This document shows, in pieces, positions 14,601-36,600 of a stretch of 64,000 nt of DNA. This DNA comes from Qipengyuania intermedia (lineage in GTDB: Bacteria > Pseudomonadota > Alphaproteobacteria > Sphingomonadales > Sphingomonadaceae). A program made the translations under genes and the position numbers. The stretch spans positions 124,001 to 188,000 of the forward strand of contig NZ_JAIGNS010000001.1 of the NCBI RefSeq assembly GCF_019711615.1, given 5' to 3'. The notes beneath the pieces were generated by a model. It was not told where the DNA came from. It made no database searches and saw only the letters and a list, made by a program, of their open reading frames with translations. Numbering within the stretch: position 1 is the first letter of the stretch; each line of letters begins with the position of its first letter.

Positions 14601-15802
14601 AGCCCGGCAGCCTTCAAAGCCTGGTCGAGGTCTTCCTTGATATCCTCGACGTCCTCAAGTCCGACATTGATCCGCAGCAGTCCCTCGGTGACGCCCATCT
14701 CGTCGCGAGCCTCCTGCGACATGCCGGCATGGGTGGTGCTGGCCGGGTGACACATCAGGCTGCGCGCATCGCCGATATTGTTGGAGATGTCGACCAGCCG
14801 GAGCGCGTCGAGGACGGCGAAAGCAGTCTGGCGGTCACCGACGTCAAAGGCAAAAATCGGGCCGGTTGCGCTCATCTGCCTCATTGCCAGCTCGTGGCGC
14901 GGGTGGCTTGGGAGGCCGGGATGCAGCATCTTCGGCACCCGCGCTTCTATGGCCTTGCCAAGCTCCACGGCGTTTTCGCTTTGGCGATGTGCCCTGAGAC
15001 CTAGTGTTTCGAGCCCCTTGAGCACGACCCAGGCGTTGAATGGAGCGCAATTGGGGCCGGTGTTGCGCTGGAACGGCAGCAGGACTTCGTCGATCCATTC
15101 CTGCGATCCGCAGACCGCCCCGGCGAGCACCCTGCCCTGGCCGTCCATCAGCTTTGTCGCGCTATAGGCCACAACGTCCGCCCCGAAATCCATGGGCCGC
15201 TGGAGTGCGCTGGTGGCAAAGGCGTTGTCGACGACAGTCGTGATCCCGTGCGCACGCGCGACTTCGCAGACATGGGCGAGATCGACCACATCGAGCGTGG
15301 GGTTTGCGGGCGTCTCGAAAAAGAATACCTTGGTGTTCGGCCGGATGGCCGCTTCCCATGCATCGTCATCAGCGCTGTCGACGACGGTGGTCTCGATGCC
15401 GAACCGCGGGAGGAGATGATCGAGCAGCCAGCGGCACGAGCCGAAAGCTGCACGCGCACCGACAACGTGGTCGCCAGCCGAGACCTGGCACAACAGCGCA
15501 GTCGTCATTGCTGCCATCCCGCTCGCCTGCGCGCGGCAGGCTTCGGCGCCTTCCATGAGCGCGATGCGTTCTTCGAGCATGGCGACCGTCGGGTTCTGCA
15601 GGCGGGAATAGGTCATCCCGTCCGCCTCGCCCGCGAAACGATCGGCCACGGTCTGCGCGTTATCGTAGGTATAGCCCGAGGTCAGGAACAGGGCTTCGCT
15701 CGTCTCGCCATGTTCGCTGCGCCAGGTGCCGCCACGCACGGCCTGGGTGGCAGGGCGCCAGGTGGAGGTGATCGAGCGGTCGGTTCCGGTGGTTTTCTTC
15801 AT
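14597..15802 (-). CDS. metZ: O-succinylhomoserine sulfhydrylase
   Basis: A 401-residue PLP enzyme of the Cys/Met metabolism family (fold type I) that makes homocysteine from O-succinylhomoserine and sulfide. Visible hallmarks are the substrate loop YSRLQNPTVAMLEERIALMEGAE (from about residue 65), the ASGMAAMTTALL phosphate-binding region, the ETPANPTLDVVD stretch, VDNAFAT and the PLP lysine Lys217 in AYSATKLMDGQGR. The start MKKTTGTDRS at 15802 gives a normal family length. Assignment to MetZ rather than cystathionine gamma-synthase/lyase rests on overall resemblance and the usual alphaproteobacterial pathway. The 40-bp gap to the upstream tetR stop is too short for a SAM riboswitch. Confidence 0.9.
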   Translation of the reverse strand: MKKTTGTDRSITSTWRPATQAVRGGTWRSEHGETSEALFLTSGYTYDNAQTVADRFAGEADGMTYSRLQNPTVAMLEERIALMEGAEACRAQASGMAAMTTALLCQVSAGDHVVGARAAFGSCRWLLDHLLPRFGIETTVVDSADDDAWEAAIRPNTKVFFFETPANPTLDVVDLAHVCEVARAHGITTVVDNAFATSALQRPMDFGADVVAYSATKLMDGQGRVLAGAVCGSQEWIDEVLLPFQRNTGPNCAPFNAWVVLKGLETLGLRAHRQSENAVELGKAIEARVPKMLHPGLPSHPRHELAMRQMSATGPIFAFDVGDRQTAFAVLDALRLVDISNNIGDARSLMCHPASTTHAGMSQEARDEMGVTEGLLRINVGLEDVEDIKEDLDQALKAAGL

Positions 15803-32242: not shown

Positions 32243-32425
32243 TCAGCGCTTTTTCGCGACCTTGATCTTGTTCTTCTTCGCGAAGTCCTTGGTGGATTCC
32301 TCGCTGCGCCCCAGAGCCTTTGCGATCTGCTTCAGCCCCTGCCCCTTGGCAGCGAGGGTGCGGAGTTGCCCCGCCTCCTCGCCCGTCCATGGTTGCTTGT
32401 GACGCTCGAAGCGTTCCTTCCCCAT
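32243..32425 (-). CDS. Small HTH-like protein translationally coupled to topA
   Basis: A 60-residue basic protein (MGKERFERHKQPWTGEEAGQLRTL...) with a tryptophan-led first helix followed by GLKQIAKALGRSEESTKDFAKKNKIKV. This reads as a small helix-turn-helix of SANT/GcrA flavour (IAKALGRS as the turn). Its ATG at 32425 shares one base with the topA stop (TGATG), so it is the second gene of a topA operon. Too short for confident family assignment; a DNA-binding or nucleoid role is inferred from fold character and pI only. Confidence 0.65.
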   Translation of the reverse strand: MGKERFERHKQPWTGEEAGQLRTLAAKGQGLKQIAKALGRSEESTKDFAKKNKIKVAKKR

Positions 32426-34971
32426 CAGTCGGCCTTCTTCTTCGCCGCCGCCTTCTTCTTCGGAGCAGCCTTCTTCTTGGCCGGAGCCTTGCGCTTTTTC
32501 TTGGCCGGTCCCTTGGCGGCGCGCGCATCGATCAGTTCGATGGCCTGTGCCTCGGTCACGTCCTCGGGCTTCATGTCCTTAGGGATCGTGGCGTTGGTCG
32601 TGCCGTCGGTGACGTAGGGCCCATAGCGGCCCGGCATGACCTTCATCTCGCCGCCGCTGGTGGGATGTTCGCCCAGTGTCTTAATCGGTTCGGCCTTACC
32701 ACGTCCGCCGCCCTTGCGGTTGGCTGCCTGGGCAAGGATGTCGACGGCGCGGTTCATGCCGACCTCGAACACTTCGCGCGTGTTCTGCAGCTTTCCGTAT
32801 TTGCCGTCATGCCGCAGGTACGGGCCGTAGCGCCCGATTGCCGCCTCGATTTCCTTGCCGGTTTCCGGATGCGCCCCGACAATGCGCGGAAGGCTCAATA
32901 GTTTGAGCGCCCATTCGAGATCGAAATCGTCGAGATCCTTGGGGATGCTGGCCCGCTTGGCGTCCTTGCCCTCGCCCAGCTGGACATAGGGGCCAAAGCG
33001 GCCGGTCTTGCGCTCTACCGGAAGGCCCGTGTCCGGGTCTTCGCCCATGACGCCGTCATTGGCCGCGTCGTCACCCTCGCTGCCAGGCTTGGCGAACTGG
33101 CGGGTGAATGTGCACTCGGGATAGTTGGCGCAGGCAACGAATGCACCGAAGCGACCACCGCGCAGCGCCAGGCGACCACCTTCGCGGCCCTCGGTCTCGC
33201 ACAGCGGGCAATGGCGCGGATCCTTGCCATCGGCGCGTTCGGGGAAGAGATAGTCGGACAGGAATTCGTCCAGCACCTCGGTCACTTCCGAGGGTTTCTT
33301 CTCCATGATCTCTTCGGTCTTGGGTTTGAAGTCCTTCCAGAATTCGGCCAGCAAGGCCTTCCATTCCTCTTCGCCAGCGGAAACTTCGTCGAGCTCGTCT
33401 TCCATGCCGGCGGTGAATTCGAACGCCACGTAGCGCTCGAAGAACCGTTCGAGAAATGCTGTCAAGAGGCGACCCGATTCCTCTGCAAAGAAACGGTTTT
33501 TTTCCATGCGGACATAGTTACGATCGCGCAGCGTCTGGATCGTGCTGGCATAGGTCGACGGGCGGCCGATGCCGAGCTCTTCCAGCTTCTTGACCAGGCT
33601 CGCTTCCGAATAGCGCGGCGGTGGCTGGGTGAAGTGCTGGTTCGCCTCGACCGCCTTCTTTGCCGGGGCATCGCCCTTGCTCATATTCGGCAGCAGGCCG
33701 TCCTCGTCATCGTCCCCGCTATCGTCGCGACCTTCCTGGTACACGGCGAAGAAGCCCGGGAATTTCACGACCTGGCCGGTCGCACGCAATTCGTGCTGGC
33801 CGGTCCCGTCGCGCAGCGTCACTGTAGTGCGCTCAAGCTGGGCGGCGGCCATCTGGCTGGCCATCGCGCGCTTGAAGATCAGGTCGTAGAGCTTGCCCTC
33901 GTCGCCCGATCCTGCACGGTCTCGCTTGAAATCAGTCGGGCGGATCGCCTCGTGCGCTTCCTGCGCATTCTTGGCCTTGCTCGAATAGAAGCGCGGCTTG
34001 TCGGGAATGTAATAGGCATCGTAGCGATCGGCGATGGCCTTGCGGCAGGCGTCGATCGCGCTGCCGTCCATCTGCACGCCGTCGGTACGCATGTATGTGA
34101 TCGCACCCGCCTCGTAGAGCGACTGGGCGCACCGCATCGTGTGGCTGGCCGAAAAGCCGAGCTTGCGGGCTGCTTCTTGCTGCAACGTGGAGGTCGTGAA
34201 CGGCGGCGCAGGATTGCGCTTGAGCGGCTTGGTCTCGATATCCTCGATGGTGAAACGCGCATCCTGGACCGCCTTTTGCGCGGCCTTGGCGCTGCCTTCA
34301 TTGCCGAGCGTCAGCTTGTCGAGCTTCTTGCCGTCGAACTTGACCAGGCGCGCGTCGAATTCCGTCCCGTCCTGTTCCAGCTTGGCGATGATCGACCAAT
34401 ATTCGTCGGCCTTGAAATGCTCGATCTCGATCTCGCGATCGACGATGATGCGCAGCGCAACAGACTGCACGCGGCCGGCGCTTTTCGCACCGGGCAGGCG
34501 GCGCCACAGCACCGGGCTGAGCGTGAAGCCATAAAGATAGTCGAGCGCGCGGCGAGCAAGGTATGCATCGATCAGCGGCTGGTCGAGCTCGCGCGGGGCC
34601 TTCATCGCATCGGTGACGGCCTGCTTGGTGATGGCGTTAAAGGTGACGCGGTCGACCTTCTCCGGCAGCGCCTTGCGCTTGGCCAGCAGTTCGCGGACGT
34701 GCCAGCTGATGGCTTCCCCTTCGCGGTCGGGGTCGGTCGCGAGAACGAGGCGGTCGGCCTGCTTGGCCGCATCGCTGATTTCCTTGAAGCGCTTCTGCTT
34801 GTCGCGATAGAGCTCCCAGTCCATCGCGAAATCCTCATCCGGGCGCACGCTGCCATCCTTGGGCGGCAGGTCGCGGACATGGCCGTATGAGGCGAGGACC
34901 TTGAAGTCCTTGCCGAGATATTTCTCGATGGTTTTCGCCTTTGCGGGCGACTCTACGATTACGAGTTGCAT
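32425..34971 (-). CDS. topA: DNA topoisomerase I
   Basis: TopA relaxes negative supercoils. It has 848 residues: a TOPRIM domain (VIVESPAKAKTIEKYLG at the start; acidic triad region DPDREGEAI), the core with active-site Tyr293 in ITYMRTDG, a four-cysteine zinc motif (CPLCETEG...CANYPEC) and further C-terminal repeat domains (RFGPYVQLGEG, RYGPYLRHDG, RYGPYVTDG). The last 30 residues are an alanine/lysine tail made of KKK and KKKA units, histone-H1-like, which probably binds DNA nonspecifically. Upstream lies a 26-base alternating purine-pyrimidine tract (35004-35029), potentially supercoil-sensitive. The small HTH-like gene follows by TGATG. Confidence 0.97.
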   Translation of the reverse strand: MQLVIVESPAKAKTIEKYLGKDFKVLASYGHVRDLPPKDGSVRPDEDFAMDWELYRDKQKRFKEISDAAKQADRLVLATDPDREGEAISWHVRELLAKRKALPEKVDRVTFNAITKQAVTDAMKAPRELDQPLIDAYLARRALDYLYGFTLSPVLWRRLPGAKSAGRVQSVALRIIVDREIEIEHFKADEYWSIIAKLEQDGTEFDARLVKFDGKKLDKLTLGNEGSAKAAQKAVQDARFTIEDIETKPLKRNPAPPFTTSTLQQEAARKLGFSASHTMRCAQSLYEAGAITYMRTDGVQMDGSAIDACRKAIADRYDAYYIPDKPRFYSSKAKNAQEAHEAIRPTDFKRDRAGSGDEGKLYDLIFKRAMASQMAAAQLERTTVTLRDGTGQHELRATGQVVKFPGFFAVYQEGRDDSGDDDEDGLLPNMSKGDAPAKKAVEANQHFTQPPPRYSEASLVKKLEELGIGRPSTYASTIQTLRDRNYVRMEKNRFFAEESGRLLTAFLERFFERYVAFEFTAGMEDELDEVSAGEEEWKALLAEFWKDFKPKTEEIMEKKPSEVTEVLDEFLSDYLFPERADGKDPRHCPLCETEGREGGRLALRGGRFGAFVACANYPECTFTRQFAKPGSEGDDAANDGVMGEDPDTGLPVERKTGRFGPYVQLGEGKDAKRASIPKDLDDFDLEWALKLLSLPRIVGAHPETGKEIEAAIGRYGPYLRHDGKYGKLQNTREVFEVGMNRAVDILAQAANRKGGGRGKAEPIKTLGEHPTSGGEMKVMPGRYGPYVTDGTTNATIPKDMKPEDVTEAQAIELIDARAAKGPAKKKRKAPAKKKAAPKKKAAAKKKAD

Positions 34972-35003
34972 TGTGGTCTGGGACGTCCCTGAAGTTTGGG
35001 CCT

Positions 35004-35029
35004 TACGTGTGTACGTGCGTATACGCGCG
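35004..35029. promoter_or_regulatory. Alternating purine-pyrimidine (Z-DNA-prone) tract upstream of topA
   Basis: 26 consecutive bases alternate strictly between pyrimidine and purine, mixing TG/CA, CG and TA steps, and include the 10-bp palindrome GCGTATACGC. It lies 33-58 bases upstream of the topA ATG, where promoter or leader sequence is expected. Such tracts can flip to Z-DNA under negative supercoiling, which is what TopA removes. The structure is seen; the regulatory role is inference. Confidence 0.5.
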
Positions 35030-35092
35030 AAAATGGGGTTCGGGTTGGAGGGGCGTCAAGCGAGTTTGTTGCGGGTGAAATTGCGGGTGGCC

Positions 35093-35119
35093 GCCAACGA
35101 CCCGATTGCGGTCGTTGGC
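35093..35119 (-). terminator. Stem-loop immediately after the unknown low-GC gene
   Basis: GCCAACGACC (35093-35102) and GGTCGTTGGC (35110-35119) form a perfect 10-bp stem with a 7-base loop, touching the TGA stop of the gene at 35120. No T-run follows, so it may be a terminator lacking a U-tract or a 3'-end stabiliser. Confidence 0.55.
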
Positions 35120-35485
35120 TCAGGCGGTTCGCGACTTCAGAATGCATTCTCGAACTGCCGCATAGAACGACACCGGTTCGCTATCTTCAGTACGCCACGT
35201 TAGATCGTCATTTGTGAAGTTGCCTAACTGCAAGACCAAGTCGTCAATTGTCTCGACCCAACGGTCGCCATTAGCGACATGCTGCCCTTGATCGTTTCGG
35301 AAATCGAGCTTCCAGCCGCCAGGCATCTCTTTATAGAACGTGATGGTGATTTGCGACCCATTGCCGTCTACTTTCGCCGTAAATGTCCGTGTCCACATCA
35401 TCATCGATCCAACTGTTACACCAGCGACGAGTTCGCTGAAGGCTTCGCGGATTACAACGTCCGCTTCCCGCTCAGTAGCGGACAT
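35120..35485 (-). CDS. Unknown 121-residue protein coupled to dprA
   Basis: I recognise no family. The ATG at 35485 shares a base with the dprA stop (TGATG), and a strong stem-loop touches its stop codon, so it behaves like a real terminal gene of the plsY-dprA operon. The protein looks soluble: a short helix (READVVIREAFSELVAG), then several beta-strand-like segments (TRTFTAKVDGNGSQITITFYKEMPGGWKLDFRND), ending in a charged helix. Base composition is near 50% GC by eye, clearly lower than its neighbours, suggesting recent acquisition or relaxed selection. Confidence 0.6.
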   Translation of the reverse strand: MSATEREADVVIREAFSELVAGVTVGSMMMWTRTFTAKVDGNGSQITITFYKEMPGGWKLDFRNDQGQHVANGDRWVETIDDLVLQLGNFTNDDLTWRTEDSEPVSFYAAVRECILKSRTA

Positions 35486-36600
35486 CAGGACAAACTCACC
35501 CGTCCCGCCGCATGTCGCTCCAGCCGCCCAGCAATCTCCAGCTCCAACAACGCTAGCTGCACCGCCGCCGCGCTTTCGCCTGACTGACGAATAAGTTCGT
35601 CGATAGCGACCGGCGCGGTTGTCAGGAGCGAGGCGATGTCGGCGGGTTCGGCCCCAGCCATCTCGGCCGGTTCGAAATCGAAGGGCGATACCGGCTCGCG
35701 AAAGGTCGAGCGCGGGCTGCCATCGAAGCCGGTGAGCAGTTCCACCACATCCTCAGGCGATTGCACCAGCACCGCGCCTTCACGGATGAGATGGTTGCAG
35801 CCGTGGCTGCGCGCTTCGAGCGGGCTGCCCGGAATCGCCATGACCTCGCGCCCTGCCTCGCCTGCCAGACGTGCGGTGATGAGGCTGCCGGACTTGACCG
35901 CCGCCTCTACTACCAGCGTCCCGCTCGCCAGCCCTGCGATGATGCGGTTGCGGCTGGGAAAGTGGCTGCCGCGAGGTTCGGTGCCGGGCGGCTGTTCTGC
36001 GATCAGCAAGCCCTCGGAGGCGATACGCTCCTGCAGGTCGGTGTGCTGCGGCGGGTAGGCGATGTCGATCCCACTTGCGATGACGCCGATGGTGCTTGGA
36101 AACGAGCCCTCGTGCGCCGCGCCGTCGATGCCGCGTGCAAGGCCCGACACAACCGTAAAGCCCGCCTCTGCCAGGCCCTGCCCGAACTCTCGCGCCAGCT
36201 TGACCGCAGCGGCGCTGGCGTTGCGCGCGCCGACCATGGCGACGCAGGGCTTCGCCGCCAGCGAGAGGTCGCCGCGATAAGTGATGATCGGCGGCGCCCC
36301 GTCGATTTCTGCAAGCAGGGCCGGATAATCCGGCTGGTCGTGGAAGAGATATTTCGCGCCCGCCGCGCGTACGCCCTCCACCTCGCGCTCGATCCGGTCC
36401 TGCGGCGCGGCGCGATATTGCCTGCCGCCCTTCTTCCCAAAGTCGGGCAGAGCCTCCAGCGCAGCAACCGCATTGCCATAGCGCGCCAGCAGCATGGCGT
36501 AGCTGACAGGTCCGATATTGGGCGAGCGCAGCAATCGGATGCGCGCGAAGGCTTCGGGCTGCGACAGAGGCGCAGCTTGCGGACGGACCGCCTCGTTCAC
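35485..36600 (-). CDS. dprA: DNA-processing protein DprA
   Basis: DprA binds incoming single-stranded DNA and loads RecA during natural transformation. The 371-residue protein has an N-terminal SAM-like helical region (RIRLLRSPNIGPVSYAMLLARYG), the Rossmann-like core with MVGARNAS, SGLARGIDGAAHEG, VIASGIDIAYPPQH and FPSRNRIIAGLASGTLVVEA. A C-terminal winged-helix-like domain follows (about 300-370, ASLLTTAPVAIDELIRQSGESAAAVQLALLELEIAGRLE). GTG at 36600 overlaps the plsY stop (GTGA). No other competence genes are in view. Confidence 0.95.
   Translation of the reverse strand: MNEAVRPQAAPLSQPEAFARIRLLRSPNIGPVSYAMLLARYGNAVAALEALPDFGKKGGRQYRAAPQDRIEREVEGVRAAGAKYLFHDQPDYPALLAEIDGAPPIITYRGDLSLAAKPCVAMVGARNASAAAVKLAREFGQGLAEAGFTVVSGLARGIDGAAHEGSFPSTIGVIASGIDIAYPPQHTDLQERIASEGLLIAEQPPGTEPRGSHFPSRNRIIAGLASGTLVVEAAVKSGSLITARLAGEAGREVMAIPGSPLEARSHGCNHLIREGAVLVQSPEDVVELLTGFDGSPRSTFREPVSPFDFEPAEMAGAEPADIASLLTTAPVAIDELIRQSGESAAAVQLALLELEIAGRLERHAAGRVSLS

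What the first reader, a model, noticed from the sequence alone, without database searches (positions are those of the whole stretch)
35004..35029. 26-base alternating purine-pyrimidine tract (potential Z-DNA) in the topA upstream region
Every base from 35004 to 35029 alternates strictly pyrimidine/purine, mixing CG, TG and TA steps and containing a perfect 10-bp palindrome. A run this long is improbable by chance in 64 kb. It sits 33-58 bases upstream of the gene for DNA topoisomerase I, the enzyme that removes the negative supercoiling which drives B-to-Z transition. This suggests a supercoil-sensing element in topA control: excess negative supercoiling flips the tract and alters promoter geometry. 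The tract is seen; the mechanism is inference.
Basis: partly seen in the sequence, partly recalled or inferred. Interest (0 to 1): 0.7.

Follow-up and report, generated by a model that had tools for sequence, protein, structure and literature searches.

The report
Conserved purine-pyrimidine alternation in topA promoter
Just in front of the gene for the enzyme that relaxes DNA, sphingomonad bacteria keep a stretch in which purines and pyrimidines strictly alternate while the actual letters drift, which suggests that a physical property of the DNA, perhaps left-handed twisting under strain, is being preserved to control that gene.

Summary
The 26-nt tract (35004-35029) is the only alternating run of 20 nt or more in its 2.7-Mb genome. 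In relatives, alternation is conserved rather than sequence: of 154 same-family genomes examined (34 genera), 148 carry a strict tract of 12-40 nt, 28-30 nt after the start of a conserved TTGAC, in 80 different sequences. In the genus, all 39 genomes examined have it; 41 inferred substitutions in 28 of them were all transitions, against 94 transitions and 159 transversions in the flanks. Three of the six genomes without a tract keep TTGAC but have another -10 region; three lack TTGAC. Sixteen genomes of other families in the order lack it. The tract probably fills the space from the -10 across the discriminator and start site into the leader. Selection on alternation is close to certain; its cause is not shown. 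Best reading: a torsion-responsive (B-Z capable) promoter element making topA follow negative supercoiling. Against pure Z-DNA: TA steps are frequent, composition is not tuned, and other window sites score similarly. Nine literature searches listed nothing describing it.

The parts
35004..35029 (-). 26-nt strict pyrimidine-purine alternation, CGCGCGTATACGCACGTACACACGTA in the sense of topA
   Evidence: a strict tract of 12-40 nt at the same place in 148 of 154 family genomes
35054..35059 (-). putative -35 element TTGACG
   Evidence: TTGAC at 28-30 nt (start to start) before the tract in 148 of 154 family genomes; the E. coli consensus scan reports no promoter here
35030..35035 (-). putative -10 element CATTTT (CAYYYT in 116 of 148; spacer 18 here)
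   Evidence: hexamer and spacer counts, flank columns; inferred from conservation, not mapped
35022..35022 (-). probable +1 (A of the common GTA, 8 nt after the -10)
   Evidence: inference: TA at tract step 4 in 112 of 148, and CA far above TG only after this point
35001..35003 (-). conserved purine flank AGG directly after the tract
   Evidence: next base A in 136 of 148, then G in 133 of 148
34986..34990 (-). likely Shine-Dalgarno AGGGA, 14 nt before the ATG
   Evidence: sequence; same spacing as AAGGGA in close relatives such as L002; inference
32425..34971 (-). topA, DNA topoisomerase I, 848 aa

Best explanation
The tract is a functional part of the topA promoter of sphingomonads in the wide sense (Erythrobacter-like genera included; the family name is inferred from the titles of named loci with the same anatomy). 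It is defined by strict purine-pyrimidine alternation and not by its letters. It probably fills the interval from the end of the -10 element through a GC-rich discriminator (CGCGCG) and the start site into the leader. Selection acts on alternation (well supported). The most likely reason (inferred) is that this stretch changes twist under negative torsion, as a B-to-Z or related underwound transition, with its upstream boundary fixed at the end of the -10. I propose that the poor, GC-rich -10 and discriminator keep the promoter closed on relaxed DNA. Excess negative supercoiling would unwind the tract and put a strained junction on the -10, helping RNA polymerase open the promoter, so that topoisomerase I is made when it is needed. 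The transcribed half carries a second, ordinary constraint: TG steps, which would create ATG or GTG codons in the leader, are avoided.
For: Strict alternation at the same anchored place with drifting letters: 148 of 151 genomes with TTGAC in range, 80 distinct tracts, interior letter ratios from about 50:50 to 72:28. In the genus all 39 of 39 examined genomes keep it, and in the 28 used for the tree 41 substitutions occurred without one breaking alternation, against 53 transitions and 97 transversions upstream, 41 and 62 downstream, and 438 and 802 at four-fold sites of topA (Fisher 2.9e-16 against flanks). Tract start 28-30 nt from TTGAC. Runs of this length are otherwise absent from the genome, and RY patterns are stated to be under-represented in alpha-proteobacteria (PMC4060949, passages). 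GC-rich discriminators make promoters sensitive to supercoiling (PMC8422995, passages). Predicted B-Z threshold of the window tract is sigma about -0.039.
Against: TA steps, the costliest for Z-DNA, are common: 137 in the interior against 102 expected from independence. Mean threshold equals that of random alternating tracts of the same composition (0.0416 against 0.0417). A 14-nt CG-rich site at 15247-15260 has a lower predicted threshold than the tract (0.0378 against 0.0391), and two non-alternating sites nearly equal it (0.0392). Z-DNA at a start site could equally block polymerase, which would be anti-homeostatic. In E. coli, predicted B-Z transitions are diminished 5' to gene starts (PMC3343103, passages). 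Three family genomes keep TTGACG without the tract. No start site, no Z-DNA detection and no expression response is available. Energy values were recalled, not read.
Confidence: 0.5

Rival explanations
1. A protein reads the alternating tract by shape, for example DNA gyrase, another topoisomerase or a nucleoid protein recruited to the topA promoter. Binding, not Z-DNA, links the gene to supercoiling.
For: The upstream region of mycobacterial topoI recruits gyrase, and loss of that region lowers promoter activity (PMC4770202, section 16). Preference of eukaryotic topoisomerase II for alternating repeats is recalled only. Fixed position, but free letters within the R/Y pattern.
Against: No bacterial protein with such a readout is known to me (recall, not searched). 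Tract length varies from 12 to 40 nt. Eighty sequences disfavour an ordinary operator. Inverted repeats are not above the null.
Confidence: 0.2
2. Alternation serves RNA polymerase directly: successive Y-R steps give alternative start sites or pauses in the initially transcribed region, tuning escape from a weak promoter.
For: The tract begins at the discriminator and spans the probable +1. TA at step 4 in 112 of 148 looks like a Y-R initiator. The shortest tracts (12 nt) would cover about -7 to +5.
Against: Start choice spans only a few bases (recalled), whereas 43 of 148 tracts are 26-40 nt long.
Confidence: 0.15
3. RNA-level element: the tract is kept as part of an unstructured or specifically structured topA leader.
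For: Strand asymmetry: CA 110 against TG 14 after the probable start (distinct tracts), so the transcribed part seems to be under an RNA-level constraint as well.
Against: Folding energy does not differ from alternation-preserving permutations (mean z -0.16, SE 0.14, 39 leaders). No Rfam match. The probably untranscribed first steps alternate too. An unstructured leader does not require strict alternation.
Confidence: 0.08
4. Chance, or a mutational by-product such as dinucleotide slippage or transition-biased mutation.
For: Lengths differ by even numbers, as slippage of dinucleotides would give; but strict alternation between a pyrimidine and a purine flank requires even length anyway.
Against: Steps are mixed, not one repeated unit. 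No alternation-breaking change among 41 substitutions against a transversion-rich background. Present in 32 of 34 genera examined. Runs of 20 nt or more occur nowhere else in the genome.
Confidence: 0.02

Closest known systems
Supercoiling-sensitive topoisomerase I promoters (mycobacterial topoI SST, PMC4770202; abstract, passages and section 16 seen)
   Same: topA controlled at its own promoter by DNA topology; homeostatic logic (the supercoiling response is not shown for the present promoter)
   Different: There the basis is a sub-optimal 14-16 nt spacer; here the spacer is 16-18 (18 in 126 of 148) and the conserved feature is alternation after the -10
GC-rich discriminator promoters (PMC8422995; passages seen)
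   Same: The first six tract bases form a GC-rich discriminator (CGCGCG)
   Different: The discriminator model rests on base composition of a short stretch; here strict R/Y alternation extends 12-40 nt
Z-DNA-forming alternating tracts, including work in which a distant B-Z transition inhibits a supercoiling-activated promoter (Sheridan, Benham and Hatfield 1999, seen only as a reference title in PMC9221221)
   Same: Alternating sequence, negative supercoiling, promoter
   Different: By its title that work uses a distant transition; here the tract abuts the -10 and is conserved across a bacterial family. Z formation is not shown here

Membership tests
Z-DNA-forming regulatory element | Strict or near-strict purine-pyrimidine alternation over a turn or more of Z-DNA | tested here: met
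   12-40 nt strict in 148 of 154 family genomes
Z-DNA-forming regulatory element | Composition favouring Z (CG and CA/TG steps, few TA) | tested here: not met
   TA is 28% of all YR steps; mean threshold equal to composition-matched random tracts
Z-DNA-forming regulatory element | Predicted transition at attainable superhelical density | tested here: inconclusive
   sigma -0.037 to -0.048 with recalled parameters; other window sites score as well
Z-DNA-forming regulatory element | Left-handed form detected in vitro or in vivo | not testable with these tools
   needs 2D topoisomer gels, Z-specific antibody or Z-alpha ChIP
Supercoiling-sensitive sigma-70 type promoter with GC-rich discriminator | -35 and -10 elements at proper spacing, followed by a GC-rich discriminator | tested here: inconclusive
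   TTGACG, spacer 18, CATTTT, CGCGCG as a conserved pattern, but the E. coli consensus scan finds no promoter and no start site is mapped
Supercoiling-sensitive sigma-70 type promoter with GC-rich discriminator | Activity changes with supercoiling | not testable with these tools
   no expression data
Mycobacterial-type SST topA promoter | Sub-optimal 14-16 nt spacer | tested here: not met
   spacer 18 in 126, 17 in 3, 16 in 19 of 148; 18 in the window
Operator of a sequence-specific regulator | Fixed bases at contact positions | tested here: not met
   80 distinct tracts of ten lengths; interior columns mix C/T or A/G, though the first six bases are mostly CGCGCG
Structured RNA leader or riboswitch | Known family match or folding beyond chance | tested here: not met
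   no Rfam match up to E 1 in 34900-35200; mean z -0.16, SE 0.14
Dinucleotide microsatellite | Repetition of one unit | tested here: not met
   mixed CG, CA, TG and TA steps

The most novel reading that the evidence does not exclude
A natural, conserved B-Z torsional switch built into the core promoter of topA across a bacterial family: a cis element whose conserved core property is purine-pyrimidine alternation, so that evolution preserves a DNA mechanical state, not a sequence, to sense supercoiling.
Probability: 0.35. Interest if true: 0.95.

Novelty: new variant of a known kind. Interest (0 to 1): 0.83.

Why it matters
Whether alternative DNA structures have a natural regulatory job in bacteria, and how topA promoters sense supercoiling, are long-standing questions. 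Here is a site where the sequence record shows selection on alternation itself, at the gene whose product controls the relevant stress, in a family with laboratory strains (recalled). Breaking or keeping alternation with matched mutations is a clean test. The element is also a regulatory site that ordinary motif finding would tend to miss, because no letter is fixed in its middle.

Tried and rejected
Chance in a GC-rich genome: rejected. Coding constraint: rejected, because lengths differing by 2 nt would shift any frame. Ordinary operator: disfavoured (80 sequences; inverted repeats at null level). RNA structure: no signal. Tuning of composition for Z-DNA: no signal. A similar tract at other genes of this genome: none of 20 nt or more; six YR-phase places of 16 nt or more are probably coding, and up to five 16-nt runs in the other phase were not examined. 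E. coli-type promoter consensus: none found, so the -35/-10 assignment rests on conservation. A topA start site in print: the Zymomonas promoter-mapping paper (PMC7566282) does not mention topA in its main text.

Literature. Searches for topA promoter with Z-DNA (0 papers), topA with supercoiling and Sphingomonas (1, judged irrelevant from its listing), Z-DNA with bacterial promoter and topoisomerase I terms (8), Zymomonas start sites (1), topA with Z-DNA and supercoiling (10), B-Z transition with E. coli promoter terms (21, 20 listed), topA with supercoiling homeostasis and discriminator (3), topoisomerase II with alternating sequence (13, 8 listed) and Z-DNA in prokaryotic genomes (6) gave no listing that describes this element. 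Most entries were seen only as listings. Passages were read in PMC7566282, PMC4770202 (abstract, passages and section 16), PMC9825172, PMC8422995, PMC9221221, PMC4060949 and PMC3343103.

Limits. A tract is found by its alternation, so two-letter columns, even lengths and zero transversions within it follow once strict alternation is granted; the evidence is that it is present at the anchored place in nearly every genome while the letters change. No genus locus was dropped for a broken tract: one search used 28 of the 30 loci and left out L019 and L028 only for tract length. That call uses Fitch parsimony on a topA tree, ignores recombination, resolves ties towards transitions in all regions alike, and counts flanks without realigning indels, so some flank changes may come from shifted columns; the codon sites do not share this weakness. 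The promoter rule chose the hexamer with the longest following tract; one search repeats the count from TTGAC alone. Family genomes not examined: G083, G167 and G208 (coordinates not listed), and G013, G029 (partial topA) and G006 (no match). Only 16 genomes of other families in the order were examined. The 23 named loci may repeat species of the unnamed set.

Full report
Observation. The 26 bases at 35004-35029 alternate strictly between pyrimidine and purine. The next longest run in the window is 15, and none of 300 simulated windows with the same dinucleotide content reached 26. In the whole genome of 2,697,527 bases it is the only alternating run of 20 nt or more (the reversed control pattern is accounted for by the same run). 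Six other places reach 16 nt in the YR phase; each lies inside a stop-free frame of 209-366 codons. Up to five 16-nt runs in the other phase, implied by the control count, were not examined. The gene behind the tract is topA on the minus strand, start codon at 34971. A published survey states that alternating patterns are under-represented in alpha-proteobacteria (PMC4060949, passages).

Comparative test. TopA was matched in 59 of 61 genomes of the first set and 195 of 197 of an order-wide set. Upstream regions were taken (30 loci; 140 loci): 154 genomes of the window's family in 34 genera, and 16 of seven other families. In the window's family 148 have a strict alternating tract of at least 12 nt immediately after a promoter-like pattern of TTGAC, spacer and hexamer. 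Lengths are 12 (7 genomes), 14 (43), 16 (10), 18 (11), 20 (30), 22 (4), 26 (40), 28 (1), 34 (1) and 40 (1). There are 80 distinct sequences; letter ratios in the interior columns run from about 50:50 to 72:28. The tract starts 30 nt (116 genomes), 29 nt (13) or 28 nt (19) after the first T of TTGAC. All 39 genus members in this set have it, and three further ones fetched later have 26 nt (G009, G225, G226). In a 60-genome genus search 59 have a YR run of 20 nt or more; places were listed for 19 of them and each includes the topA tract. The one without, G029, has a topA match beginning only at residue 174.

Exceptions. Counted from TTGAC alone, 151 of the 154 have TTGAC in range and 148 of these have the tract. 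L173-L175, one genus, keep TTGACG but have another -10 region and a long leader. L205 and L210 (a genus in which four others keep the tract) and L238 (sole member of its genus here) have neither. Among 23 named sphingomonad loci, 22 have it; Sphingosinicella microcystinivorans (L052) does not. The 16 genomes of other families in the order show no run above 11 nt. The 57 further loci outside Sphingomonadales, mostly titled as Alphaproteobacteria (L053-L110 without L060), show none above 13 nt in the 160 nt before topA; one of them has less than 160 nt.

Selection on alternation. On a topA tree of 28 genus members with 26-nt tracts, the tract shows 41 inferred transitions and no transversion. 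The 26 nt upstream show 53 and 97, the first 19 nt downstream 41 and 62, and four-fold degenerate topA sites 438 and 802. Fisher's test gives 2.9e-16 against the flanks and 1e-18 against four-fold sites. Zero transversions is the same fact as strict alternation in every row; no genus locus was left out for a broken tract, and the two left out differ only in tract length (20 and 28 nt, both strict). Flank columns were not realigned for indels, which may inflate flank changes; the codon sites do not share this weakness. Even length follows from strict alternation between a pyrimidine and a purine flank and is not separate evidence. By chance a given 12-nt stretch with the base make-up of the flanks would alternate with probability 0.0005.

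Anatomy. On the topA strand the order is TTGACG (35059-35054), 18 nt, CATTTT (35035-35030), the tract (35029-35004), AGG (35003-35001), a probable Shine-Dalgarno AGGGA (34990-34986) and ATG (34971). In the family the putative -10 fits CAYYYT in 116 of 148, most often CACCCT (58 of 148), which keeps only the second and last bases of the usual hexamer; an E. coli-type scan reports no promoter. In Zymomonas and Caulobacter the -10 lacks the conserved last T of E. coli (PMC7566282, passages); here the base before the tract is T in 144 of 148. The first three tract steps are mostly CG (138, 130 and 132 of 148), giving a GC-rich discriminator; the fourth is TA in 112 of 148, a natural Y-R initiation site 7-8 nt after the -10. 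After this point CA outnumbers TG 110 to 14 among distinct tracts, while in the first three steps they are 8 and 13. In an alternating tract every TG after the first step makes an ATG or GTG codon, so this asymmetry suggests that the tract is transcribed from about that point. That is inference; no start site was mapped.

What property is selected? RNA folding does not differ from alternation-preserving permutations (mean z -0.16, SE 0.14, 39 leaders) and inverted repeats are at null level. No RNA family matches. Fixed-base recognition along the tract does not fit. Z-DNA is the classic consequence of strict alternation (recalled; also stated in PMC4060949). With recalled energy values the tracts would switch at sigma -0.037 to -0.048, the window's at -0.039; the discriminator study took -0.032 and -0.023 as starting levels in its model (PMC8422995, passages). 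Against a simple Z account: TA steps make up 28% of all steps and are above independence expectation in the interior (137 against 102), the mean threshold equals that of random alternating tracts, and a 14-nt site at 15247-15260 scores lower in the same window. A short (CG)n would serve Z formation better. I therefore hold alternation-dependent torsional behaviour as the leading idea, with Z-DNA as its most specific form.

Mechanism, with certainty marked. Well supported: conserved alternation locked to a promoter-like pattern. Likely: overlap with discriminator and start of transcription. Inferred: negative torsion unwinds the tract and strains the adjoining -10, so that initiation at a promoter that is otherwise hard to melt rises with negative supercoiling; this fits homeostasis, as reported for mycobacterial topoI, where promoter activity falls on relaxation (PMC4770202, abstract and passages). 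The opposite sign, a block by Z-DNA, cannot be excluded. Rivals are a shape-reading protein such as gyrase (the mycobacterial topoI upstream region recruits gyrase), direct effects on start choice or pausing, and an RNA role.

Comparison with the known. Control of topA by supercoiling is known, through spacer length in mycobacteria, and GC-rich discriminators are a general determinant. What differs here is that the conserved feature is alternation over 12-40 nt. None of the nine literature searches listed in Tried and rejected pointed to a description of such an element; most hits were seen only as listings, so this is not proof of absence from print. I file it as a new variant of supercoiling-sensitive topA promoters, noting that the response to supercoiling is not shown here, and keep the B-Z switch as the bold reading.

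Unexplained. Lengths 14, 20 and 26 dominate (found in 12, 12 and 7 genera) and 24 was never seen, a 6-bp step that could reflect half a Z turn, a duplicated hexamer or ancestry.

On recounting, the number of non-Sphingomonadales loci was corrected to 57, the other-phase 16-nt runs were added, and the dependence of zero transversions on strict alternation was spelled out.

Noticed in passing
35120-35485 (-): 121-aa open frame between dprA (35485-36600) and topA with no Pfam match; in L190 and L208 a frame that looks by eye like the end of dprA stops just before the topA promoter.
   Followed up: partly
34985-35003: The window's topA leader has about 13 nt more between the tract and AGGGAC than most genus relatives seen; L129 (another genus) has a similar extra stretch.
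   Followed up: partly
34971-35003 against L002, L026, L118: TopA is 99% identical in protein to G028 (L002), yet leader and first codons resemble L026 and L118, hinting at exchange of the upstream region.
   Followed up: partly
15247-15260: CGTGCGCACGCGCG, the lowest predicted B-Z threshold in the window by a rough scan with recalled energies.
   Followed up: no
L160 and L161, topA upstream: Two genomes of one genus (g36) carry 40- and 34-nt strict alternation with sequences unlike most of the family.
   Followed up: partly
L261:581-603: A 23-nt alternating run in G005 that lies in none of the listed open frames; the only one of five second sites checked in genus relatives not inside a long frame.
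   Followed up: no
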